Source: Chlorogloea purpurea SAG 13.99
GTDB lineage: Bacteria > Cyanobacteriota > Cyanobacteriia > Cyanobacteriales > Microcystaceae
NCBI GenBank assembly: GCA_016903695.1
Contig: JADQBB010000018.1
Span: 1-64,000 of the forward strand
Direction of reading: 5' to 3'
DNA length: 64,000 nt
Part shown: positions 31,382-44,335 of the stretch, in pieces
Numbering within the stretch: position 1 is the first letter of the stretch
Layout of the letters: every line of letters begins with the position of its first letter
Translations under genes and position numbers: made by a program
The notes under the pieces: generated by a model
Seen by the model: the letters and a program-made list of their open reading frames with translations, nothing else
Databases searched by the model: none
Told to the model about the DNA's origin: nothing

Positions 31382-32881
31382 CTATAAGACATATTTATGC
31401 TTGACTCCTACCGGGAAGTATTGCGGGTCTCCCGATGGCAAAAGTGTAATGTACGGAGTTTGCAACTCGGTCGGAACATAATTGGCGAATTCGCTATTGA
31501 GACGCAATAGTTGAGACTTAATCGAGGCTGTGACGGCTTTTTGTTTCTCTTCCGAATGAGTTACGTTTAAAGCCAACTCAACTACTATCCAGAAGAGAGG
31601 ATTTAGCGCGTCATCCTCCCTCACCCCCATGACGAATTTTCCCGTCACCCAATCGCAGATTTCGGGCTGTTCTAAACCTACCGCTATATTTTCCACATAG
31701 ATATTGGCCCCGAAGTAAGAAAGAGTGAAGTAAGAACGTCCGAAGATGTAAACGAAGGGTAGAGGATGGATGCCGCGCCCATCTCCGAAAACATCAAAGG
31801 GGTTAAATCCACATTCTCCCCGTAAAAAATCCAGCATCTCGTCGTAGGCAATGATTCCCCCTCGATCGCCGATGTGATAGCGTATCAGTGGAATGCCATT
31901 ATCCCCTGAGAATAATAATGTCCCGTCTCTCGTCTCAAAAAAGCGACTGGTGGAGTCGTATTGCACGAGGGTGGGTAAACGGGATTCCCCGAATAAACGG
32001 CGCACGGTTTCCGGCTTCCCGGCGAGAAAGCGACGAATACAGATAGAGAGAGGCGTTTCAATACCCAATACTCCTGCGTCGGCTGTTCCATACAGGGAAG
32101 CCGAGTCATAACAGGGGTCTGAAAAACCGACTCTCGACCCCACTAAAGTACGCCACTCCTCGCTGAATACTTCCCCCGCCATAACGAGTTTGATCTTATA
32201 TGAAGACCAATTTATATTTTGATCCGTGCCGGTATCGATGACTTCTTTCAAAAAAGGTGGATAACCCAGTAGGACTACTTGCTCGAATAAAGAGCCTAAC
32301 TCGGCTACCACTCTTAAAATTTCCGTTTTATTATTGCCTGGGGTTATAAGGGTTATGGGGTAGTTTTTCGCCGCTAGATAACGGCAACAACTAGCGGTGA
32401 ACATTCCCCCCACCCAAGTCCCCATCGGAAAACACACAACCGCCAAAGTTCGTTTGCTTCGGGCTTGAAAACTCTCTAAGAATATCTGTTCAAAGCGTCT
32501 GGTGATGGCTAATTCATCGCTGGTAAAGCGGGGCCAGAAAGTCGGTTGGCCGCTAGTGCCGGAAGAGACGGCGATAAAATCACAGCTTTCTAATTCACCA
32601 CCGGGGCATAATTGAGCTAGCGAATAACGTTTTAAATAGTTCTCTTTAGTGATTAGTGGGAGGGATTGAAAGTCGGCGAAACTGCGGATGGAGTCGGGAT
32701 CGATCGAATGTTCTCGCAGAAATTCTTTATAGGCTGGAACCGTCGCCGCAACCCGATGGAATAATTCTAGAATATTTTTTTCGGGGTCGGTTGTAGTTGC
32801 TTCTTGTAGGTGAGTTTCTAAGGAGGTGTCCAGGAATGAGTTAAAGGCAGATAAGAAGCGTTGTGTTCGAGTGTTTTCCAT
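31382..32881 (-). CDS. ANL-superfamily adenylating enzyme (phenylacetate-CoA ligase-like)
   Basis: A 499-residue member of the acyl-adenylating (ANL) superfamily, closest in style to phenylacetate-CoA ligase and LuxE-type proteins. The nucleotide-binding loop is SSGTSGQPTFWPRF (about 106-119), the A5-like motif is SLYGTADAG, and the hinge region contains HIGDRGGII. A C-terminal GVKHKYVL may supply the catalytic lysine. It would activate a carboxylic acid as an acyl-AMP, substrate unknown. It begins 9 bases after the ZorB-like gene on the same strand, so it appears to be the last gene of the motor operon, an unusual companion. Confidence 0.85.
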   Translation of the reverse strand: MENTRTQRFLSAFNSFLDTSLETHLQEATTTDPEKNILELFHRVAATVPAYKEFLREHSIDPDSIRSFADFQSLPLITKENYLKRYSLAQLCPGGELESCDFIAVSSGTSGQPTFWPRFTSDELAITRRFEQIFLESFQARSKRTLAVVCFPMGTWVGGMFTASCCRYLAAKNYPITLITPGNNKTEILRVVAELGSLFEQVVLLGYPPFLKEVIDTGTDQNINWSSYKIKLVMAGEVFSEEWRTLVGSRVGFSDPCYDSASLYGTADAGVLGIETPLSICIRRFLAGKPETVRRLFGESRLPTLVQYDSTSRFFETRDGTLLFSGDNGIPLIRYHIGDRGGIIAYDEMLDFLRGECGFNPFDVFGDGRGIHPLPFVYIFGRSYFTLSYFGANIYVENIAVGLEQPEICDWVTGKFVMGVREDDALNPLFWIVVELALNVTHSEEKQKAVTASIKSQLLRLNSEFANYVPTELQTPYITLLPSGDPQYFPVGVKHKYVL

Positions 32882-32890
32882 ATATAGTGT

Positions 32891-33523
32891 TCATGGGCTT
32901 TCCGTTAGAGCGGATTTTCTACCGGGGGGAATAAAACGGATTTCAATGCGTCGGCGGCTATCGTTGTCGGTACGATCGATCTGGGCTAACTTTCCTGATG
33001 GGAGATATAATTGCCCCGCAGAATAAGCGCGAAATTTCACGTCGGGTAGTTGCCCGGTTTTTTGAATTTCTTGCACTACAGCGAGGGCGCGCATTAATCC
33101 TAAATCGGTGTTCGAGCCGGGGGATAATACTTTCACATTTTCCCTACCGTTAGCCACCGTCTCTATTTTATTATCCAAGTTGCCAACGCTACTAATTTCC
33201 GCACCGTCCGTATGGCCTATAATCTGTACGAAGTCTATATCATGGTTTTTGACGGTATTTTGAATGGTGGGAATCACCGATGTTAAGATGTATTGTCTTA
33301 ACTGCGGGGTCAAGGCGGCACTTTTAGAAACGAAGGTAAAGTTACCCGATTTTTCATCGATGACTATGGGCGTTGCCGATTGTAATCTGCGGTTGAGATT
33401 ATTAACGTGAAATAGGGCTAATATCAGGAAGAAACTGAGGATCATGAAAGCATTTGACATTAAATCCGTGAAGGCTTGGAATACGTTTAATTCCTCGTTC
33501 TCGAAGCTTCGGGTACGTCTCAT
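32891..33523 (-). CDS. ZorB/MotB-like OmpA-family motor subunit
   Basis: A 210-residue protein with one transmembrane helix (about 20-42) and a periplasmic OmpA-like domain. Asp20 at the start of the helix (FTDLMSNAFMILSFF) sits where MotB and ZorB have the ion-carrying aspartate. The OmpA domain shows IIGHTDG, a central TDLGLMRALAVVQEI and NDSRRRIEIRF, the residues that bind peptidoglycan in this family. It overlaps the channel subunit gene by 4 bases, the typical MotA-MotB or ZorA-ZorB arrangement. Expected to form the stator peptidoglycan anchor of an ion-driven complex. Confidence 0.88.
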   Translation of the reverse strand: MRRTRSFENEELNVFQAFTDLMSNAFMILSFFLILALFHVNNLNRRLQSATPIVIDEKSGNFTFVSKSAALTPQLRQYILTSVIPTIQNTVKNHDIDFVQIIGHTDGAEISSVGNLDNKIETVANGRENVKVLSPGSNTDLGLMRALAVVQEIQKTGQLPDVKFRAYSAGQLYLPSGKLAQIDRTDNDSRRRIEIRFIPPGRKSALTESP

Positions 33524-35100
33524 GGTTTTGATTTATTAGTTCCGTTATTCGTGGGAGAGTTTTTGATCCCGTTGCCCAAACCGGGGGTGCTTTGTTGGGA
33601 TAGATAAGATTCGATCGATCTCATCGCTACCAGCGCTTTTTGTAGGTCTTCTGAAATCAAGCGTGTGCTGTGATTGAATTTACTACTTTCTTGGGTGATC
33701 AGATTATTTAGTCTTTCTGCTATAGCCGTAGACCTATTTTGATTTTCACTTATTAATTGCTTGAGTTGTTGGATTTCTACCGTTTGCACGTCGGTATTTT
33801 TTACCGCTAGTTCTAATAAGTCTTGTAGGGCTTGATAAGTTAGAGTTTGTTTTTCGAGAGTGGTTGATAACTCTTCACGAATTTTTTCTAAATGTCTCGT
33901 ATCCGAAGTTAATATACCTAGTGAACTTTCTGATAGATCTTTTATATCCTGCCCGAAATTAACCATCGTATTACTAGACTCGGTAACGGTAGCCACTGCT
34001 GAATCGATAGAAGCGATTAATTCTTTTACACCATTAACCGTATGAGCTAATTTTTGTTGAGTATTATCTAAATTAGTCGTAGCGTTAATTAGCTTTTGCC
34101 CGAATTCACTGTTATTGATGCTATTCGATGCGGCGGCGAAAACTTGGGCGGTATTTTCTAAAGTTCGCGAATAGTTGATAAAATTTTCATGTTGGACGAT
34201 CGTACTTATTTTTGCCACTTCGTCCTTCAATAAATAAGCCGATTGATTGTATATATCAGCGCCGGCCCTTATAGAGCCAGAGACTTCACTCAGTTTGTCA
34301 TATACTTGTTTAGCTAGGTCTGCCGCTTCTTTATTACCCTGGGCGATTTGTTTGGCCACGGCCCCTAAAGACGACTCTACAGCCTTGGTAACGTTCTCGT
34401 GAAAGCGTTGTAAAAACTCCTGTTGTTGGTCTACCATCCGGTTAACGGCTTTATCCAAACGGCTATCGCCACTGACTTCGGGGGAGAGAATATTATCGAG
34501 ATAATCTTCCAAGGTAGCGAGTAATTTATTTCTAGCCACACTCGTATTAAACATGAGATTGATTACCGTCAGGAGGGAACTACAAATCAATCCGATCAAA
34601 CTGGTAATAAAAGCGATACCCATACTCTGTAGGGGTGTTTGCAGACTCTGGATTAATTTATCGCTGTTGCCAGAACTTTGACTGATAATCCCGCTCATAT
34701 TGGTCAAGTTCAAAGTGATACCTAAAAACGTCCCCAGTAAGCCGAAGGCTAAGAGTAAATTGGGTAATACCCTAGTGAAGTAATCCCATTGTTCGCACTT
34801 AGGGGAGAATCCGAGAAAGTTAAATTTCTCGTCGCCGTAGACGCTATCTACCAGGGCGGTAGTGTTTACCGTATCCAGTTTTGAACTGGCTCTTTTGAAT
34901 CTGTCTTCTAGTCTCTCGATGCTTGGGGGTTGTTTTCCTCTGCTATCTCCTCTTATGAGACGATTGATTTTATCAGTAGCATCATCTAGATAGCTATAGA
35001 GATTAATTCTGATCAGTATGGTTATGAAGGTGGGTAGTATAACTACTATCCCGGTGAACCAGACTAACCCGGGTGGTAATAGTTTTAACCAGTCAAACAT
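33520..35100 (-). CDS. ZorA/MotA-like ion channel subunit with long coiled-coil tail
   Basis: A 526-residue MotA/TolQ/ExbB-family protein. Three membrane helices lie at about 10-32, 112-133 and 159-183. The second contains LLAFGLLGTFLGIT and the third QSMGIAFITSLIGL, both hallmark ZorA/MotA pore motifs. The remaining 330 residues are a continuous helical, coiled-coil tail (VEIQQLKQLISENQNRSTAI region), which is the feature that distinguishes ZorA from flagellar MotA. With the overlapping ZorB-like gene it should build a pentamer-dimer motor whose tail reaches into the cytoplasm. This is inferred by analogy with Zorya; flagellar genes are absent. Confidence 0.88.
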   Translation of the reverse strand: MFDWLKLLPPGLVWFTGIVVILPTFITILIRINLYSYLDDATDKINRLIRGDSRGKQPPSIERLEDRFKRASSKLDTVNTTALVDSVYGDEKFNFLGFSPKCEQWDYFTRVLPNLLLAFGLLGTFLGITLNLTNMSGIISQSSGNSDKLIQSLQTPLQSMGIAFITSLIGLICSSLLTVINLMFNTSVARNKLLATLEDYLDNILSPEVSGDSRLDKAVNRMVDQQQEFLQRFHENVTKAVESSLGAVAKQIAQGNKEAADLAKQVYDKLSEVSGSIRAGADIYNQSAYLLKDEVAKISTIVQHENFINYSRTLENTAQVFAAASNSINNSEFGQKLINATTNLDNTQQKLAHTVNGVKELIASIDSAVATVTESSNTMVNFGQDIKDLSESSLGILTSDTRHLEKIREELSTTLEKQTLTYQALQDLLELAVKNTDVQTVEIQQLKQLISENQNRSTAIAERLNNLITQESSKFNHSTRLISEDLQKALVAMRSIESYLSQQSTPGLGNGIKNSPTNNGTNKSKP

Positions 35101-35127
35101 AATATGTGATTTTTCCTTAGTGCTAGT

Positions 35128-38100
35128 TTATATATAGATATTTTTCTTGAGTTTCTCGTATTCTTGTTGATCGATCGTACCCTCGTCTAATAATTGTTTC
35201 AGTTCTTTTAAAGCTTTGATAATTTCGAGGGTGGATTTAGAGGGGGGAGAAGAAACATTGACGGCGCTAGAAACTTTAGAAGTGTTATGACCGTTAACCT
35301 CGTGAGATTCGTTCTCAACAGTTGCGACCTGCGGGGTTAAACGAGCCTGTCGAGAAGTAAAGCCGGAAGTTTGACCAGGTTCACCCGAAGCTAAACTTTT
35401 AGTATGTATATCTTTCAGTCTCCTTCTCAGGTCACTTATATATCTGGAAATGATTCCTTCTTTCGGTGTAGAATCGATCGTTTCATTCTCTCCCCCCACT
35501 TTAGATTTATACAGAAAATTAGCATCTTTTTCCGTCAACATTTCTACTTCTTGTAAGAACTCTCTCACTAAAGGTAGGTAATCACTTTCAAAAATTTGGG
35601 GATTGGCGAAAATTTCTGTTTCTACTACTTGGAGTCTCCGGCGTAATTCGTTAACCATATTCCGGCTCAGAACTAATTCCTCTAAAGCTTCTCGCCAACT
35701 ACCATTAAGAGATAGAGGATAGTGTTTGGCGTGTAATTCGTCGTAATAGTCGAATTGGTATCTTCCCGTATCACGATTGAAGGGAAGCTGTTGAAAAGCC
35801 AAACAAGGATACAGGATTAGTTCCAACTCCTCGATCATTTTGGCTTCGGTGGGAACGATCTCGATAAACTGGGTTCTGTAGTCGTTGTGCAGAGTGCTAT
35901 TACTTTTCCGCTGCATCATATACTGTTCTTTCATATCCCTGAGATCGTTAATTATCCTGAGAGGGAAACCACCGTATTGACTGATGATCAAAATCTCATC
36001 TTCTTTCTGAATCGGTTTGAAACAATTATCTGGTACACCTATTTCATCCATCAAAATGCGCTTGAACTGTTTTACCTCTGACTCGTCCGTTTCTTTCAAA
36101 CTGATGATGTCATTTCTCTTGACGCTCAACTCTTTAAAGTAACGTTGATCCGATAAATTAAGCGATAGTAAGGGTTCTGCCGAATCTAGGATCTGTCTCA
36201 ACCGGCGCGATGTATCAGCGATCGAATAACTCTCCATGAAAGCTTTCATCACTGCTTGAAACTCGGTAGATATAGATAGCTTGAACAAGGGGGCTATAAT
36301 CCCGTTCAGCGATTCCTGTAGTTGCTGAATATCGCTTTTCAAACGGTTTCTATTGATCAAACTGAACAGAGACGACTCGCCCAGACTCTCCATGACTTGA
36401 TGAGTGCTGAGAACTAATTGTGCCCGTGAATTCACGCCTTCCAAATATTGATCAACATCCTGTTTGGTAGAAATTGCTTCACCGCTCATCTCGTTAAAAT
36501 TAGCTTGCTTTAATTCTTCTTCCCGTTTTTGGTAAGAGGCTTCTAAATTCTGTACTAATACCTTAAAACCTTGCACCTGATTCAATCTTAAAGCTATATG
36601 CTGTTGCAGGTTTTCCAGCGATTTTAACGTCCAATCAACCAAGGAAAAATTGAAATTTTGCTTGACAATTTTAACAACTTTATTGATTATTTCTAATATT
36701 AGCATTTTTATATTACTGCTTTGATTACCTTTGAATAAAGAGACGGGAAATTTATTTCTACTCTCAATATCTTCGATTTCCTGTTTAACTTCAGCCAAAA
36801 TTTTATCTATTTTATCCGGCGATTGCATTCCCAATGAATCTTGTTTTCTCTCCTCTAAATTCCTTTGAGCTTGGCTCAATTCTGTTTTTAAACACTCCAA
36901 GAATCCTAAACAGCTATCGACGGAAAACTCTGGCTTATCGGGATTGAGTAAATCCTGCAAAAATTCATCGATGTCATTTTTGAGAATTTCAGTCAAACTC
37001 GGTTGAATTTTTTGTAAATTCGTCAACCAAACACCCCGGATATTTTCCGTATCACCCGGCTGTACGGTGCGGAATAAGTTTCTCAACTCTCTGGGTAAAT
37101 TCTGCTTGAGATTATCCATATCCTGAGAGTTTTTACTTTCGGCAATTTTGCTTTCCGTTGAAGTCTTCCAAGCGTTAAGGGTTTGATTGAAGTTTTTATT
37201 ATTATCCCGCGTGGCTTCTTCTAACTTGCCGATGATAAAGTCTTCTACTTTTTTCGCCGTCGCCCACTGCAGTAAAAATCTCTCGCTCAACTCCCTTGAA
37301 TCAGGGCTTTGCCCCGCCCCGTTGGCCCAAAATTGTACGAGTCTTAACGTCAGGCGGTTGAGGGCGATATTCACCATCCTCTCGCGATTGAAGTAGATGG
37401 AAGATAAGCCAAAGGTCAAATAATGCTGTGGCATCCTAAAAGGGTGAGAATCCAAACCGAACATCACTTCCGGTTTGAGGAAATTATCTCGATAACTTCT
37501 GATCTGACTGCCTATCTCGCTGGCTATAGTGAGATATATTTTATAGGCTATAACATTACAAAGCTTACCTTTCTCGGTGATCTGATAATCCCCGAAAGTT
37601 TTCTCAGAAATTAAATAGGGAAAATCAAACGGGGGTCTAGCCTCTACTACATTAACCTGATGTTGTTTGTCATAGCAGGCCTCGAAGCTTTTTCCATTAG
37701 TGCTGTAGTGATTGAGTTCTTTTAAAGCGGCGTAAACATTCGCCCTCATCGTGGGAGCGTTACCGTATAAAGTAGGGCTAACCACTAGATAGCCGTAGAG
37801 ACTGGTGTGATTCCTGTAAAGATTGCGGATAGCATAGGCCACGTCCAAAAATGTACCGCTACCCGTACCGCCGCACAAGGAACCGACGACGAACACATCT
37901 AAGCCAGGTTGGATGTTATAACCCTGTAGTAACATCGCGCTTTCGTGGCCTCTCGTCCGCACCTCGGCCGCCTCTATAGCCTGTTTGAAACGGCGATAGT
38001 TATGGAAGAAGGCTAATCTACCCACGGGCCTGATACCTTGCGCCCCATCCTCGATCGATTTTACCTGATCCTTCAAGCGTGGATCGAACCAACTTTCTAT

Positions 38101-38430
38101 ATGGGAAAAAGGACTCTCGGCGTAGGATGGATGTTCTAATTCATAGCGAAAATTATTCACATCTTGGGCGGACATGGTGATCATCACTTTTTCGATGTCT
38201 CTAAATAATATTTCCTCCCCGTGATAGGTGTTACCCGTCGCTAATCCCGAATTATTTAATGTGCCTTTATCCGTATCTATCTGTACGAAACTGACCACCG
38301 GTAAATTAGCTAAACTACCGTGTTGATCGATGATAAATCTCCTGATTCTCATCAACACATCTCGCCCTGTGCCGCCTAATCCTACACAAATCGTTCTTTT
38401 AATCTCTCTAGTTTGTTGGTCTTGACTCAT
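35128..38430 (-). CDS. Giant tubulin-like GTPase with coiled coils and C-terminal SHOCT motif
   Basis: An 1100-residue protein with an N-terminal tubulin/FtsZ-like domain (bacterial tubulin-like family, Tubulin_2). The first nucleotide loop is VGLGGTGRD (16-24), a T3-like loop is GIRPVGRLAFF (132-142), and the tubulin signature is CGGTGSGT (186-193). Residues about 450-770 are largely coiled coil, and the C-terminal 35 residues (LKELKQLLDEGTIDQQEY region) form a SHOCT-type oligomerisation motif. It lies between the VWA gene (15-base gap) and the ZorA-like gene (27-base gap) on the same strand. Probably a GTP-dependent assembling or switch protein; its role is not established. Confidence 0.88.
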   Translation of the reverse strand: MSQDQQTREIKRTICVGLGGTGRDVLMRIRRFIIDQHGSLANLPVVSFVQIDTDKGTLNNSGLATGNTYHGEEILFRDIEKVMITMSAQDVNNFRYELEHPSYAESPFSHIESWFDPRLKDQVKSIEDGAQGIRPVGRLAFFHNYRRFKQAIEAAEVRTRGHESAMLLQGYNIQPGLDVFVVGSLCGGTGSGTFLDVAYAIRNLYRNHTSLYGYLVVSPTLYGNAPTMRANVYAALKELNHYSTNGKSFEACYDKQHQVNVVEARPPFDFPYLISEKTFGDYQITEKGKLCNVIAYKIYLTIASEIGSQIRSYRDNFLKPEVMFGLDSHPFRMPQHYLTFGLSSIYFNRERMVNIALNRLTLRLVQFWANGAGQSPDSRELSERFLLQWATAKKVEDFIIGKLEEATRDNNKNFNQTLNAWKTSTESKIAESKNSQDMDNLKQNLPRELRNLFRTVQPGDTENIRGVWLTNLQKIQPSLTEILKNDIDEFLQDLLNPDKPEFSVDSCLGFLECLKTELSQAQRNLEERKQDSLGMQSPDKIDKILAEVKQEIEDIESRNKFPVSLFKGNQSSNIKMLILEIINKVVKIVKQNFNFSLVDWTLKSLENLQQHIALRLNQVQGFKVLVQNLEASYQKREEELKQANFNEMSGEAISTKQDVDQYLEGVNSRAQLVLSTHQVMESLGESSLFSLINRNRLKSDIQQLQESLNGIIAPLFKLSISTEFQAVMKAFMESYSIADTSRRLRQILDSAEPLLSLNLSDQRYFKELSVKRNDIISLKETDESEVKQFKRILMDEIGVPDNCFKPIQKEDEILIISQYGGFPLRIINDLRDMKEQYMMQRKSNSTLHNDYRTQFIEIVPTEAKMIEELELILYPCLAFQQLPFNRDTGRYQFDYYDELHAKHYPLSLNGSWREALEELVLSRNMVNELRRRLQVVETEIFANPQIFESDYLPLVREFLQEVEMLTEKDANFLYKSKVGGENETIDSTPKEGIISRYISDLRRRLKDIHTKSLASGEPGQTSGFTSRQARLTPQVATVENESHEVNGHNTSKVSSAVNVSSPPSKSTLEIIKALKELKQLLDEGTIDQQEYEKLKKNIYI

Positions 38431-38445
38431 GGTAGCTATCTCTAG

Positions 38446-39564
38446 TTATTTACGGTTAATTTGTATGGTTAAATCGAAGGGCTTTTTATTTTGGGGACAT
38501 TCAATTCTTAATAAGGAATTTTCTATTTTTATCGGGCGCGTAACTTCCTCGTCTTTATAGAATATTGACCCCTGTTGAGTCGGTTTTAAGTATAAGTTGT
38601 TACCCTGTCTCTCCAGATAACCTCGAATATCTTCCCCAGGGCAATAAATTGAGTTGAATCCATCATCACCTATAGGAATTTTCTGCTTATTTTTTAACTT
38701 ACATTTTTGTGTCTCCCTCTCTTCATCGGAATCGAACCTGATTTCTAACTCCCAAGGCTTTGCCAAACTCATTAAATGCCTTAGTAGTGCTACAGCCCCG
38801 ATTAACCCGATTCCGCAAATTAATCCTGGTAGCCATAATTTTCCTATCAGGTATTGATTCACCAAACAGCTTTCTTTCCCTCCTGGCGCGGGTGTGCAGA
38901 ATTCCTGTACCGTAGCGGGCAGATCAACTATGGATAAATCGGTCGTCTTACTCAGGGATTTTTCCCTCGTATTTAGAGGTAAAGCATTAAGCCATTTTTC
39001 GCGATCGATGCTTTCGGGTGATGTGGCTATTCTAAAAGGACTATCGGCGGGCGTTTCCACCCAAGTATTGGAATCGATACCCGGTTTTGTATTTAGCGGC
39101 GCGTCGGTAATCCATACCACCGATTGAGATTTTACCCTCTCCCCGTCACCCAGGCGACACTGATTGAGTCGGGCGATTCCCTGATAAATCGATAATTCGG
39201 CCCGCTGTATATCTGTATTGCGGATGTTGGGGTTAGACTCCCAGGGAATAATGCTTAAGATTTTGTCTACATCCTCTTTACCTTGAAAGCGGATGGGATT
39301 GGCGAAAGGTTTATTAGCCCCCAGGATGGGATTTATATCGGACGCGAAGGGCACGACGTATACCGTATCGCCGGGGCGTAAACTATCCTCGATGATCTGC
39401 CGTAGACGTATACGCCCCTGGTCGTTAAATTCTACGCTACCCGTGAGATCGATCGCTAAGACCACATCCCGCCCCCGGAAACGGGAGACGAGATTCAATC
39501 CCGCTTTTTGCCACGAGTTTAAAGCTTCTCCTGGGGTTACGCTGGAGCAATCACCGGTTTTCAT
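38446..39564 (-). CDS. VWA-domain membrane protein
   Basis: A 372-residue protein, first gene of the five-gene operon. The von Willebrand A domain (about 30-190) has a MIDAS-like DLTGS (D39, T41, S43; Ser replaced by Thr at the second position) and a downstream VVWITDAP. A transmembrane helix lies at about 243-261, followed by a beta-rich C-terminal domain of about 105 residues (ELEIRFDSDEE onward) reminiscent of a small sandwich fold. Cysteines at 223 and 233 just before the helix suggest a disulfide, but there is no N-terminal signal peptide and an upstream in-frame stop excludes a longer start. Topology is therefore unclear. Confidence 0.85.
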   Translation of the reverse strand: MKTGDCSSVTPGEALNSWQKAGLNLVSRFRGRDVVLAIDLTGSVEFNDQGRIRLRQIIEDSLRPGDTVYVVPFASDINPILGANKPFANPIRFQGKEDVDKILSIIPWESNPNIRNTDIQRAELSIYQGIARLNQCRLGDGERVKSQSVVWITDAPLNTKPGIDSNTWVETPADSPFRIATSPESIDREKWLNALPLNTREKSLSKTTDLSIVDLPATVQEFCTPAPGGKESCLVNQYLIGKLWLPGLICGIGLIGAVALLRHLMSLAKPWELEIRFDSDEERETQKCKLKNKQKIPIGDDGFNSIYCPGEDIRGYLERQGNNLYLKPTQQGSIFYKDEEVTRPIKIENSLLRIECPQNKKPFDLTIQINRK

Positions 39565-39693
39565 ACAGGTTTATCTTTTGGCGGTCTCTTTTAGAATTCC
39601 CGATCGGCTCCGAAAAATTACTAACTCTGTAAAATGATTTGTAGTGGCGTTGATAGTGAAGATACCCTAAAATTATCAATCATTGGCTATCTC
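39565..39693. promoter_or_regulatory. Divergent promoter region between the VWA-tubulin-motor operon and the XPB helicase gene
   Basis: 129 AT-rich bases separate the two start codons (from ATG 39694). Both transcripts must start here or inside the neighbouring coding sequence, so a shared control region is likely. I see no convincing -10/-35 pair or operator palindrome. Confidence 0.4.
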
Positions 39694-41370
39694 ATGTCCT
39701 ATAACCCTGAAAACGCTCTTATAGTACAGAGCGATCGCACCATCCTCCTCGAAGTTCATTCCCCCAGGGCCGAAGAAGCTAGAGGAGCGATCGCACCGTT
39801 CGCCGAACTCGTTAAAAGTCCCGAACATATCCACACCTACCGCCTCACCCCCTTAAGCATCTGGAACGCGCGGGCCTCGGGTTTAGAAGTGCAATCGATG
39901 CTAGATGCCCTGACCCAGAACTCAAAATATCCAGTGCCGTCAGCGGTGATTCAAGAAATCGGGGCATTGGGAAATCGTTACGGACTCACCCGCCTAGAAC
40001 GCTCAGAAGACGGCTTTTCCCTTATACTCATGGTTGCCGATGAACCTCTAGCGGAATTGTTACGGCGGGAAGATGCCGTCGCACCCCTTTTAGAAAAACG
40101 ACTCTCTCCCCTCTCTTTTCAAGTTAACAGTGGTCATCGGGGATTGCTGAAAAAAGCCCTCGTAGAAGTAGGTTATCCCGCCCAAGATTTAGCCGGATAT
40201 ATCGCCGGGGATGCTTTACCGATAAAACTACGTGACGTGGCCAATAGTGGACAGCCTTTTATTTTGCGTCCCTATCAAAAAGAAGCGGCGGAAGCCTTCT
40301 ATCAGTCGGGACAAGTTCAAGGAGGTAGCGGGGTCATCTGTCTTCCCTGCGGGGCGGGTAAGACTATAGTGGGTATGACCGCTATGGCGCAGGTGCAGGA
40401 AAACACCCTCATTCTCACCACCAGTTTAACCTCGGTGCGGCAGTGGCACAGGGAAATATTAGATAAAACCCAGTTGCCGGAATCAGCGATCGCTGAATAC
40501 TCTGGAGAGAAAAAGTCCACGGGGCCGGTTACTATCGCCACTTACCAAATCCTCACCTATCGCTCTCAAAAAGATGGCGATTTCCCCCACTTCTCCCTGT
40601 TTCAAGCCCGCTCTTGGGGCTTGATCATCTATGACGAAGTTCACCTGCTGCCGGCTCCCGTTTTCCGTATCACGGCAGAATTACAAGCGAGAAGACGTTT
40701 AGGATTGACCGCAACTTTAATCAGGGAAGATGGCAAAGAAGGAGATGTATTCGCTCTCATCGGCCCGAAACGCTATGACGTGCCCTGGCGAGAATTGGAA
40801 TCCCAAGGTTTTATCGCTACAGCCAGTTGTAAGGAAATACGGATTCCCCAAGACCAAGCGCAACAGATGGAGTATGCACTAGCGCCCAATCGTAATCAAT
40901 TCCGTATCGCCGCGGAAAATCCTCGTAAGGTGGCGGTAGTTCAGAAGTTGATTCAAGAGGAAGCGGGGCACAAGATACTGATTATCGGTGAATATCTCGA
41001 GCAACTGGAACTATTGGCTAAAACTACTAATTTCCCTTTGATCACGGGGAAAACCGCCCAGAAAAAACGAGAGGAACTTTATCAACGGTTTCGGGATGGT
41101 CAATTGGGGGGATTGGTATTATCGAGGGTGGGTAACTTCGCCTTGGATTTACCCGATGCGGATGTGTTGATTCAAGTGTCGGGGAAGTATGGATCGAGAC
41201 AAGAGGAAGCCCAAAGACTGGGGCGAATTTTGCGCCCTAAATCCGATGCTAGAACCGCGAGATTTTATACTTTAGTCACCCTGAGAACTTGCGAAGAAAA
41301 TTTCGCCCGTCACCGACAACTATTTTTAACCGAGCAGGGATATGGCTATCAAATCGAGATTTTGGATTGA
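39694..41370 (+). CDS. XPB/Rad25-type DNA helicase
   Basis: A superfamily 2 DNA helicase of 558 residues from ATG 39694 (MSYNPENALIVQ; an upstream GTG/ATG frame extension to 39634 looks non-homologous). The N-terminal 190 residues contain the XPB damage-recognition-like and helicase-associated part (LTPLSIWNARASG). Motor motifs are Walker A LPCGAGKT, Walker B YDEVH, motif III LGLTAT, motif V-like GNFALDLPDAD and motif VI QEEAQRLGRILRP. Bacterial XPB proteins unwind DNA in repair-like roles. Its usual helicase-associated companion lies at 42149-44335. It is divergent from the VWA-tubulin-motor operon, so shared regulation is possible. Confidence 0.92.
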   Translation: MSYNPENALIVQSDRTILLEVHSPRAEEARGAIAPFAELVKSPEHIHTYRLTPLSIWNARASGLEVQSMLDALTQNSKYPVPSAVIQEIGALGNRYGLTRLERSEDGFSLILMVADEPLAELLRREDAVAPLLEKRLSPLSFQVNSGHRGLLKKALVEVGYPAQDLAGYIAGDALPIKLRDVANSGQPFILRPYQKEAAEAFYQSGQVQGGSGVICLPCGAGKTIVGMTAMAQVQENTLILTTSLTSVRQWHREILDKTQLPESAIAEYSGEKKSTGPVTIATYQILTYRSQKDGDFPHFSLFQARSWGLIIYDEVHLLPAPVFRITAELQARRRLGLTATLIREDGKEGDVFALIGPKRYDVPWRELESQGFIATASCKEIRIPQDQAQQMEYALAPNRNQFRIAAENPRKVAVVQKLIQEEAGHKILIIGEYLEQLELLAKTTNFPLITGKTAQKKREELYQRFRDGQLGGLVLSRVGNFALDLPDADVLIQVSGKYGSRQEEAQRLGRILRPKSDARTARFYTLVTLRTCEENFARHRQLFLTEQGYGYQIEILD

Positions 41371-41398
41371 GAATGGCTCGGATAATTTTTTTAAGATA

Positions 41399-41719
41399 TT
41401 AGTTTTTAGAAATGACCAGCATTTCTCTGATTGTTGGCGACCGGAATCCGAAAATAATGTCTTCGGGAGATACGCCGTAATCTATCAGTTCTCGTTCAAC
41501 ATAAATTTCGGTACTATTGTGCTGTAGCCAAATTTTACCCTCAATTATGTCTAACTGCATGGCACAGCCATAGATCCGATAGTCGTTTCGCCATTCGTTA
41601 TGTATCACGAGATAGCGATCTCTTTCCTTATCAAAAACTAATTGAGCATTATGATCTTTTTTACAAAAATTCATGAGTAAATCTTGCACGATATGACGAT
41701 ATTGGTTTACTCGATCCAT
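41399..41719 (-). CDS. XisI-like protein
   Basis: A 106-residue protein of the XisI family, first described as an fdxN-element excision controlling factor in heterocystous cyanobacteria but spread widely as a mobile gene pair. Typical stretches are QYRHIVQDLLM at the start, GCAMQLDIIEGKIWLQHN and GVSPEDIIFGFRSPTIRE near the end. It overlaps xisH by 13 bases. No excisable nif element is visible, so the pair is probably toxin-antitoxin-like or defence-related cargo. Confidence 0.93.
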   Translation of the reverse strand: MDRVNQYRHIVQDLLMNFCKKDHNAQLVFDKERDRYLVIHNEWRNDYRIYGCAMQLDIIEGKIWLQHNSTEIYVERELIDYGVSPEDIIFGFRSPTIREMLVISKN

Positions 41720-42123
41720 TGTTCTAATACCTCAAGTTTAGGATTGTAAACGATCAGCCGGACTTGATAACGCTCGATCGCAGTCTTGGCAGGCTCGAAC
41801 CGAAGAAACATCCGGTATGTATCGATCGGCACGGCCAAGTAAAGAACGCGCTCGGGTTCGTCGGAGATTTCTAAAGCGATGCGGTAGTTGAGAAATTGAC
41901 CTAGTGCGGTATGGAACTCGGAAACGGTTGAACTTCCCGCGAAGCTTTTCACCTCTACAGCTATTTTACGCCCTTCTTTCTCGGCGGCGATAGCTTCTTC
42001 GGCAGCTAGATCGATGTAGAGGTCGGATACTCCATAGCGTATGGGGTAAGGATCGTGGGTTATTTTCCAACCTTCTTTTTCAAGACCTATTTTGACTATA
42101 TTATAAAATAAATCTTTTGCCAT
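41707..42123 (-). CDS. XisH-like protein (nuclease-fold)
   Basis: A 138-residue XisH family protein. ATG 42123 (MAKDLFYNIV) is preferred over a TTG at 42132. The sequence GVSDLYIDL and, after a short helix, KIAVEVKSF fits the D-(x)n-ExK pattern of restriction-endonuclease folds, as known for XisH. EFHTALGQFLNYRIAL follows. It precedes and overlaps xisI. The pair sits between two genes (XPB helicase and its helicase-associated partner) that are usually adjacent, so it looks inserted. Confidence 0.93.
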   Translation of the reverse strand: MAKDLFYNIVKIGLEKEGWKITHDPYPIRYGVSDLYIDLAAEEAIAAEKEGRKIAVEVKSFAGSSTVSEFHTALGQFLNYRIALEISDEPERVLYLAVPIDTYRMFLRFEPAKTAIERYQVRLIVYNPKLEVLEQWIE

Positions 42124-42148
42124 AAGGTTCAAAAATTATCAAGGACAT

Positions 42149-44335
42149 TTATTTATCAACTTTTAAATCATCGGTGATCGTTAACCCTAATAGGGCTAAT
42201 TTTTGTTGCAGGGGTTTCACTTCGCTTTTATTAATTAATAAAAACCCATAACCTAAAATACCCACCCAATAATTTTTAAATTGTTCGTGTTTTGTCACTA
42301 AATCAAAAACTTCTGCATCGGGACAATGTAAAACCAATACTTGGGCCAATTCTACTTTTTTATACTGCCCCGCCCATCCTTTTAAAGCCACCCCTAAATA
42401 TTTCGGCATCGCCGCTATCAATCTATTTTTGAGAGTATCGAGCAAGTCATTAATATTACCCCCCGATCGCACAGCTTGTTGAACCGATTCTGATGTTAAT
42501 TGCCAAACGGTTTCCGATTGCCTATCCGCCCATCTGTCCAAATAATCCGGTAAAAGAAAATCTGCCTTTGTAGTTACTGTGATCTTTCCCCCCTCCGTCG
42601 CCGATAAACAGCGGGGTAAAGGTTTGGTATAGTCTATGGTGGTCTCGATCGAAGTTTTAGAGGGGCTTTGTCCCGACGCGAGCAAGAAAAAGCGATCGCC
42701 TATACATTTACCTTGTAATTTTTCCTTGGCTACCGTATCTTGACGTGCTTTCTCGTTGGGGAACTCTAATAATTTCGTGCATGGATATAAGCTAATTTCT
42801 TCTCGTAATCGTCCCCAGGAATTTAAATCCACCACTACATTCTGGGGCAGGGGAATAGAACAACCCTTTCGCAATCCCTCTAGTAAATCCGTTAAAGATG
42901 AACCCTTTTCCAGCGATCGATACACCGATTCCCTAGTTAATTGATAGACGGCGACGTGCTGTTCTACTTTAATCCTCTCGGCATGACGTTCTAAGAAAGC
43001 TAGTCCCTTGGAATCGGTAGCGCTCAAATAAACGACTATCTCGAAATTAGGTTGGACTAGCCAAGAAGCTTGGGCGGAGTTCGCGGATAAGTTCTCAGAA
43101 TCGAAACCGGGATCTAGTATCTGTTTTCCTAAAGGTGTCAAGCGAAAATAGAGAGGTTGGCCCTTCGGCGAATCGATTTCCACGATTCCCAAAAAGTACA
43201 GCCAAGTGGTTAACATTTTCTCGAAAAATTGACGTTCGTTTTGTAACCAATCTAGACGGAGTTTATCAAGAGTGCCGGATTTTTGAGCGTTTTTATATAT
43301 CAAAAATAATCGGGGACTCGTCCCTAGATTCAGAGAAAAATATCTACTGATACGATCGTACAAGCCTTGGTCTAATTCATCGAGAGACCAGAAGACTCCT
43401 GTATCCACAGGTAAAGACTTCAAAACCAAGAAGAAAATCACCCGCGCTTCTACATAAATATTCGGGTCGCTCCAATACCGTAAGCTCCATTCTTGCCAAT
43501 TTTTCAGGCCCATGAAGTTCCTTAATAAGGGTATGATTTGCTCCCGGTATGAACAAGAGGCAAATTCTTCTATTGGCTTTGACAATTCTATAGAGTCTCC
43601 CGTTTGATTTAAACCCAACCAATCGGCATCGTATAAAACAGTAATGAGCGCCAAAATTGGCGAGGGAAATTCCCAACCATCGAAGTTGTTTTTGCTATCT
43701 CCCCATTTGATAAGTCTCGCCAATTTTTTCACGTCATTAACTCGTAAATCCCCCGTTCTCGTCATTTTTAAGCCGCCTAAATTATCGATGGACTGCAAAA
43801 TGCCGATCAATTCTAATGAAACCACCGCCGGTTGACGGAATGTGGAAGTGACGGACTCATGAACCGGTGTCAGATTTAAAGGTTGGAAAACAAGGCTGTC
43901 AACGCTATCTAGTAGGCGATAATCGCTAAAAAGTGCAGTTTTTTCGTCAACGGTGGCCGAGAAAAAACGCCGATCGTTACTGGGTAAAAACAGGCATTTA
44001 GCGATTAAAGAATAAGCGATATTTTTAATCTGGTCGGTATCATTGGAGCGGGGCAGGGCCACGCCGGTGGCGATGATGCCCAGTCCCAAGGTGCTGACTT
44101 TTATCGTCCCGCCGCTCATTTTCGCCAAGAACAGGGCGTTGCGCTCGTAGGGCTCTAAAGAATTAACCACCTCCCTGACTTTTTCTGGATTGGCTAATCC
44201 CTCGTTGATCAGACGGATACATTGGGCTTTCACTAATTTTTCGTGCCCGCCCCAAATCGATGCGGCTTTTTTTAATTCTTCGCTACTGGCTCTATCGAGA
44301 TACGGGGTGATTTGTAGGGGATTGGGGTTGACCAT
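42149..44335 (-). CDS. Helicase-associated (Helicase_C_3/XPB-partner) protein
   Basis: A 728-residue protein lacking helicase motor motifs. Twice it shows the helicase-associated unit seen with XPB: a WLVQPNFEIVVYL strand-rich start, QLTRESVYRSLEKG and PLPQNVVVDLNSWG at about 435-530, and a second degenerate copy with LTSESVQQAVRSGG near 620. The N-terminal 300 residues are helical with predicted winged helices (TLGLGIIATGVALP, ELIGILQSIDNLGG). In other bacteria such genes accompany an XPB-type helicase, which is here 0.8 kb away in opposite orientation. Likely a DNA-binding accessory subunit. Confidence 0.85.
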   Translation of the reverse strand: MVNPNPLQITPYLDRASSEELKKAASIWGGHEKLVKAQCIRLINEGLANPEKVREVVNSLEPYERNALFLAKMSGGTIKVSTLGLGIIATGVALPRSNDTDQIKNIAYSLIAKCLFLPSNDRRFFSATVDEKTALFSDYRLLDSVDSLVFQPLNLTPVHESVTSTFRQPAVVSLELIGILQSIDNLGGLKMTRTGDLRVNDVKKLARLIKWGDSKNNFDGWEFPSPILALITVLYDADWLGLNQTGDSIELSKPIEEFASCSYREQIIPLLRNFMGLKNWQEWSLRYWSDPNIYVEARVIFFLVLKSLPVDTGVFWSLDELDQGLYDRISRYFSLNLGTSPRLFLIYKNAQKSGTLDKLRLDWLQNERQFFEKMLTTWLYFLGIVEIDSPKGQPLYFRLTPLGKQILDPGFDSENLSANSAQASWLVQPNFEIVVYLSATDSKGLAFLERHAERIKVEQHVAVYQLTRESVYRSLEKGSSLTDLLEGLRKGCSIPLPQNVVVDLNSWGRLREEISLYPCTKLLEFPNEKARQDTVAKEKLQGKCIGDRFFLLASGQSPSKTSIETTIDYTKPLPRCLSATEGGKITVTTKADFLLPDYLDRWADRQSETVWQLTSESVQQAVRSGGNINDLLDTLKNRLIAAMPKYLGVALKGWAGQYKKVELAQVLVLHCPDAEVFDLVTKHEQFKNYWVGILGYGFLLINKSEVKPLQQKLALLGLTITDDLKVDK

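What the first reader, a model, noticed from the sequence alone, without database searches (positions are those of the whole stretch)
31382..39564. Five-gene operon joining a ZorAB-like motor to a giant tubulin and a VWA protein: candidate undescribed system
Seen: VWA protein, tubulin-like GTPase, ZorA-like channel, ZorB-like OmpA protein and an ANL enzyme follow each other on the minus strand with gaps of 15, 27, -4 and 9 bases. Established: ZorA and ZorB form an ion-driven, peptidoglycan-anchored motor with a long cytoplasmic tail in Zorya anti-phage systems, which recruits ZorC/D or ZorE as effectors. Inference: here the tail may signal to a tubulin-like polymer or switch and a VWA adaptor in place of those effectors, forming a defence or envelope-sensing machine.
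Basis: partly seen in the sequence, partly recalled or inferred. Interest (0 to 1): 0.88.

Follow-up and report, generated by a model that had tools for sequence, protein, structure and literature searches.

The report
Zorya-like motor paired with tubulin GTPase
Many cyanobacteria keep a four-gene cassette that pairs a wall-anchored, ion-powered membrane motor resembling the Zorya anti-phage motor with a giant tubulin relative and a probable VWA membrane protein; parts of it were noted in 2010, the motor seems not to have been recognised, and what it does is untested.

Summary
The five reading frames and their spacing are real, but only four belong together: VWA, tubulin-like (FtsZl1/Tubulin_2), ZorA-like channel and ZorB-like OmpA protein. 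A scan of 84,980 species genomes found 155 relatives of the tubulin gene; of the 80 loci kept, 69 hold all four genes, and all 80 are cyanobacterial. The fifth gene (ANL enzyme) is in none of them. In two genome surveys every intact cassette tubulin has the motor channel in the same genome (28 of 28), once at a distant locus. Motor pairs, mostly diverged, also occur alone. The channel and OmpA profiles match ZorA and ZorB best among solved structures and the ion-path residues are invariant, but no ZorC/D/E effector is present and ZorA cut-offs are not reached. A model of the tubulin protein suggests a complete tubulin fold interrupted by about 390 mostly helical residues. A tubulin-motor-OmpA set also lies on Deinococcus plasmids. 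The tubulin-vWA-OmpA association was reported in 2010; the motor link was not found in the papers I could read. Defence is unproven: many loci sit beside housekeeping genes. Best reading: an envelope-spanning, ion-driven machine acting on a tubulin-family GTPase; a Zorya-like defence role is the main rival.

The parts
38446..39564 (-). VWA-type protein, 372 aa: N-terminal domain with MIDAS-like residues (DLTxS, T117, D154), conserved Cys pair, one TM segment (about 243-265), C-terminal beta domain
   Evidence: recurs first in the cassette
35128..38430 (-). FtsZl1/Tubulin_2 GTPase, 1100 aa: T1 GLGGTG (17-22), T4 SLCGGTGSG (184-192), long mostly helical insertion about 372-770, fold resumes about 772-844, SHOCT 1073-1098
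   Evidence: Pfam 3e-97; AF2 pLDDT 85; CetZ/tubulin matches
33520..35100 (-). ZorA-like MotA/TolQ/ExbB-family channel, 526 aa: three long membrane-region helices, invariant T124 and S167, long helical cytoplasmic tail (about 214-503)
32891..33523 (-). ZorB-like protein, 210 aa: one TM with invariant D20, periplasmic OmpA-type peptidoglycan-binding domain (D106, R145 invariant)
31382..32881 (-). ANL/PaaK-like adenylating enzyme, 499 aa; co-directional with a 9-base gap but not conserved with the cassette, considered not part of it

Best explanation
VWA-TUB-ZORA-OMPA is one functional cassette. Inferred: ZORA and OMPA form a 5:2 ion-driven inner-membrane motor anchored to peptidoglycan, as in ZorAB; the long helical tail of ZORA reaches into the cytoplasm and acts on TUB, a tubulin-superfamily GTPase that may assemble near the membrane; the membrane-anchored VWA protein links TUB or the tail to the envelope. 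The cassette would turn a change in the cell wall into ion flow and tail movement, and so into assembly or disassembly of the tubulin-like protein. The most likely use is sensing or remodelling of the cell envelope, with a Zorya-like anti-phage role the main alternative. Shown here: the parts, their conservation, co-occurrence, sequence affinity to ZorA/ZorB, intact ion-path residues, and a predicted complete tubulin fold. Inferred: stoichiometry, contact between tail and TUB, polymer formation, function.
For: Four genes together in 69 of 80 loci; every intact cassette-type TUB has ZORA in its genome (13 of 13 in 145 genomes, 15 of 15 in 39 relatives; two genomes, G000 and G119, are in both sets; Fisher 1e-17 and 5e-9, not corrected for relatedness). 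In G174 TUB+VWA and ZORA lie about 2.16 Mb apart yet co-occur. Pairwise distances of the four proteins correlate (r 0.75-0.92), which shared ancestry of the hosts could also give. PDB sequence search: the channel profile finds only ZorA below E 0.1, and the OMPA profile finds ZorB first. Foldseek ranks six ZorA chains first. T124/S167 in 69 of 69 and D20/D106/R145 in 60 of 60. The TUB model aligns with CetZ, Z 25, 297 of 342 residues, model 10-844. Deinococcus plasmids carry TUB, MotA/ExbB-type and OmpA genes in the same order.
Against: No experiment on any component. The motor pair, close or diverged, exists without TUB (G145, G171 channel only, G065, G094, G147, G148), and an adjacent OMPA is missing in some loci. 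By VIA-align the channel fold is tied between ZorA, TolQ and ExbB. TUB lacks a canonical T7 NxD motif as read by eye, so GTP-driven polymerisation is uncertain. VWA topology is contradictory: more Lys/Arg on the C-side of the TM in 63 of 63 (VWA domain outside) but no signal peptide. TUB-ZORA gaps reach hundreds of bases at some loci.
Confidence: 0.5

Rival explanations
1. The cassette is an anti-phage defence system: the ZorAB-like motor senses envelope perturbation at phage entry, and the tubulin-like GTPase and VWA protein replace the nucleases ZorC/D/E as effectors, for example by trapping phage DNA or remodelling the membrane at the entry site.
For: Closest solved relatives of both motor parts are ZorA and ZorB. 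Patchy presence, with an inserted transposase and decayed copies (L060, G063, G058, G108, G152, G175). Deinococcus plasmid homologues; in one, an AAA ATPase and a DUF2357 gene lie upstream. Motor-less FtsZl1-vWA loci on three Thermaceae plasmids carry brxL nearby. Tubulin-vWA-GTPase conflict systems were proposed in PMC7159879.
Against: No nuclease or other known effector in the cassette. The PADLOC flank scan shows scattered matches, several of them likely housekeeping or kinase paralogues, and no coherent system. Conserved synteny with core-type genes in many loci. True Zorya with zorC exists separately in cyanobacteria.
Confidence: 0.3
2. VWA-TUB is a membrane-remodelling module as proposed in 2010, and the motor pair is a separate neighbour that only shares transcription.
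For: Most FtsZl1 clades seen in cyanobacteria have no motor beside them; the motor exists without TUB in G145, G171, G065, G147, G148.
Against: Cassette-type TUB was never found without the channel in 28 genomes, including one where they are unlinked.
Confidence: 0.15
3. The five genes including the ANL enzyme form a biosynthetic or signalling operon specific to this strain.
For: Co-directional, 9-base gap.
Against: No relative of the ANL gene in the 80 homologous loci.
Confidence: 0.03

Closest known systems
Zorya ZorAB motor (PMC11890865; PDB 8VVN, 8QYD)
   Same: ZorA-like channel with long cytoplasmic helical tail plus ZorB-like TM-OmpA protein; conserved Asp and Thr/Ser positions of the ion path; best sequence matches among solved structures
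   Different: No ZorC/D/E in the cassette; below NCBIfam ZorA cut-offs; partnered with a tubulin-like GTPase and a VWA-type protein
FtsZl1 system of Makarova and Koonin 2010 (PMC2875224)
   Same: FtsZl1 (Tubulin_2), vWA protein and, in some genomes, OmpA-family protein in one predicted operon, cyanobacteria included
   Different: Their main text names no MotA/ExbB/ZorA channel and could not identify the C-terminal part of the tubulin fold; here a fixed motor partner and a model with an interrupted complete fold are found
GAP1-N2 GTPase-centric systems with tubulin and vWA proteins (PMC7159879)
   Same: Tubulin-domain proteins with coiled-coil regions and vWA proteins in one neighbourhood, proposed as conflict systems
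   Different: Centred on TRAFAC GTPases and FNIII repeats, the tubulin version in Firmicutes and Actinobacteria; that paper's text holds no MotA/ExbB
TolQR / ExbBD / MotAB 5:2 motors
   Same: Same motor superfamily; VIA-align Z about 10-11 to TolQ and ExbB
   Different: Sequence profiles favour ZorA; long tail; gene partners differ

Membership tests
FtsZl1 / Tubulin_2 (PF13809) | Significant PF13809 match with GTP-binding glycine loop GGTGSG | tested here: met
   326 bits vs cut-off 27; SLCGGTGSG at 184-192
FtsZ/tubulin superfamily | Complete tubulin fold including the C-terminal domain | tested here: met
   AF2 model aligns over 297 of 342 CetZ residues, model range 10-844, with a long insertion; prediction only, coordinates not inspected
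Zorya | ZorA and ZorB homologues at family cut-off | tested here: inconclusive
   Best relatives are ZorA/ZorB but NCBIfam ZorA cut-offs are missed: 46 vs 100, 32 vs 500, 21 vs 190 bits
Zorya | Effector module: ZorC+ZorD or ZorE (or the type III equivalents) encoded with ZorAB | tested here: not met
   No such match among the five genes and four neighbours; the same library does recognise zorC in cyanobacterial Zorya loci L179 and L180
Zorya | Conserved ion-path residues (ZorB Asp; ZorA Ser/Thr ring) | tested here: met
   D20 in 60/60; T124 and S167 in 69/69; assignment by analogy with PMC11890865
Zorya | Protects against phage | not testable with these tools
   Needs plating assays
5:2 ion-driven motors (MotA/TolQ/ExbB) | MotA/TolQ/ExbB channel fold | tested here: met
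   AF2 model residues 6-236 match ZorA/TolQ/ExbB, Z 10-11; helical models can score this high by chance, but the top rows are all this family and sequence agrees
VWA domain | Profile match to VWA | tested here: inconclusive
   8 of 41 members match VWA_2, best E 0.003; the hhalign test did not exceed shuffled controls
VWA domain | MIDAS residues DxSxS...T...D | tested here: met
   DxTxS variant; D, T and S invariant in 41, T117 and D154 in at least 90%
Makarova-Koonin FtsZl1 system | FtsZl1 with vWA and, in some genomes, OmpA-family genes | tested here: met
   PMC2875224; subject to the VWA identity above
GAP1-N2 tubulin conflict system | TRAFAC GTPase GAP1-N2 and FNIII protein in the neighbourhood | not tested
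   No such gene among the cassette members; no dedicated search for these families was made

The most novel reading that the evidence does not exclude
An ion-driven rotary motor mechanically or conformationally drives a tubulin-superfamily cytoskeletal GTPase through a cytoplasmic tail, coupling the cell wall and the ion gradient to a prokaryotic tubulin polymer.
Probability: 0.3. Interest if true: 0.88.

Novelty: new variant of a known kind. Interest (0 to 1): 0.6.

Why it matters
FtsZl1 was described in 2010 and I found no function reported for it since; ZorAB is a motor whose tail is thought to signal inward. A fixed partnership between the two makes both open questions testable in common cyanobacteria (Nostoc, Microcystis), and would be the first case known to me of a stator-type motor paired with a tubulin relative.

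Tried and rejected
ANL enzyme as a fifth member: no relative in 80 loci. Flanking radical-SAM and XPB genes as members: likewise none. Cassette on plasmids or phages: the window ZORA has no plasmid match, TUB finds only diverged plasmid relatives and no phage match. VWA proof by profile-profile comparison: not above shuffled controls; the VWA-type profile also found no VWA structure in the PDB sequences. Full-length ZORA profile against PDB sequences: swamped by coiled coils, hence the channel-only profile. Defence-gene enrichment around the cassette: 33 PADLOC families at E 1e-20 among 138 flank proteins against 3 among 127 controls; the difference leans towards the cassette flanks, but the 33 families come from few proteins, include cysteine-desulfurase (DndA/SspA), kinase-like and helicase paralogues, and form no system, so I call it inconclusive. 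A first pfam call failed on one wrong frame and was re-sent with corrected coordinates. The Zorya structure paper in Nature is not held.

Full report
Observation. The five minus-strand ORFs and their spacing are as described. TUB is a clear Tubulin_2 protein. The channel scores as ZorA-like in PADLOC and NCBIfam but below the NCBIfam cut-offs. The small protein is ZorB/OmpA-like. The VWA protein has no Pfam match of its own.

Conservation. In 145 sampled cyanobacterial genomes 46 have a Tubulin_2 match, of several types. One type lies in a four-gene cassette VWA-TUB-ZORA-OMPA; the others examined have no motor next to them. A scan of 84,980 species genomes with the cassette-type TUB alignment gave 155 relatives; the 80 kept are all cyanobacterial, and 69 hold all four genes. 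The query alignment was itself cyanobacterial and its own sequences drew near relatives first, so this does not show that other phyla lack it. The rest are mostly cut by contig ends, decayed or rearranged. The ANL, radical-SAM and XPB neighbours have no relative in these loci, so they are not part of the unit.

Co-occurrence. ZORA at over 300 bits occurs in 14 of the 145 genomes; 13 have a cassette-type TUB (in two of them, G143 and G037, the gene is split) and one (G063) a TUB remnant beside ZORA. In 39 relatives, 15 genomes with cassette TUB (one with a stop codon) all have ZORA and VWA; two further genomes have ZORA at over 250 bits without TUB. G000 and G119 are in both sets, so 28 counts two genomes twice (26 distinct). 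In G174 the TUB-VWA pair and ZORA are far apart but both present. Fisher tests give 1e-17 and 5e-9, without correction for shared ancestry. Pairwise distances of the four proteins correlate.

Motor. The channel-only profile finds five ZorA chains and nothing else below E 0.1 in the PDB sequences; the OMPA profile finds ZorB 8vvn_B first. The AF2 model of ZORA is confident for residues 1-200 and poor in the tail; Foldseek ranks ZorA chains one to six, at E values of 0.001 to 0.01, while VIA-align ties ZorA, TolQ and ExbB. T124 and S167 of ZORA and D20, D106 and R145 of OMPA are invariant in all sequences compared. By analogy with ZorAB (PMC11890865) these fit an ion path and peptidoglycan binding. 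Zorya loci with zorC occur separately in cyanobacteria, so the cassette is not simply a Zorya locus with missing genes.

Tubulin. The AF2 model (mean pLDDT 85, pTM 0.70) matches CetZ and tubulins. VIA-align covers 297 of 342 residues of CetZ with model residues 10 to 844. From the secondary structure I infer that the fold runs to about residue 372, is interrupted by about 390 mostly helical residues, and resumes near 772. Makarova and Koonin could not find the C-terminal part of the fold in 2010 (PMC2875224). I had no coordinates, so the boundaries are approximate. A SHOCT motif ends the protein (just below its cut-off).

VWA. MIDAS-type residues are conserved and VWA_2 is the Pfam family most often hit among relatives, weakly; hhalign was not above shuffled controls. 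Charge bias puts the C-terminal domain inside in 63 of 63, which would leave the VWA domain outside, yet there is no signal peptide. Topology is open.

Other phyla. Three Deinococcus plasmids have a tubulin-like gene followed by a MotA/ExbB-type channel and an OmpA gene, in one of them with a transposase in between. Three Thermaceae plasmids have vWA, tubulin-like, a hypothetical gene and brxL, without a motor.

Function. Conserved synteny with core-type genes in many loci (gene names there are read from the sequences by eye) argues against a mobile defence island; decay and patchiness show the cassette is dispensable. The flank scan was inconclusive. I favour an envelope-linked machine at 0.5 and defence at 0.3. 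No experimental evidence exists for either.

Literature. FtsZl1 with vWA and OmpA is known (PMC2875224); tubulin-vWA conflict systems were proposed (PMC7159879). No held paper contains both 'Zorya' and 'tubulin-like'. Supplementary files of the 2010 paper could not be read, and most subscription papers are not held, so novelty of the motor link is provisional.

Noticed in passing
L064:7591-15262 and similar in L063, L065, L066, L067, L174: A recurring cluster with a ~500-aa weak Tubulin_2 protein next to a ~1100-aa protein with weak MreB/FtsA matches (tested in L064), and in L064 an FGE-sulfatase/pentapeptide protein; it may belong to the tubulin/HSP70 systems of PMC7159879.
   Followed up: partly
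L188, L194, L195 (Thermaceae plasmids): vWA, tubulin-like, hypothetical and brxL genes in the same order on three plasmids, without a motor: a possible separate defence-linked FtsZl1 system.
   Followed up: partly
L060:10678-11685: A transposase-like ORF lies inside the tubulin gene of a cassette; L035 also has a split tubulin gene.
   Followed up: partly
L203, L207, L208, L172, L173: ZORA-OMPA pairs without tubulin or VWA genes, mostly diverged: motor modules of unknown partner.
   Followed up: partly
L091:15786-18356 and 12 other loci: An ~830-860 aa protein without Pfam match (tested in L091) often follows the cassette in one synteny group.
   Followed up: partly
window 39634-44335: XPB-type helicase, XisI/XisH pair and a 728-aa Helicase_C_3 protein next to the cassette; XPB is not conserved with it.
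   Followed up: no
L068:17086-19264: A second, fragmented ZORA-OMPA copy beside the intact cassette.
   Followed up: no
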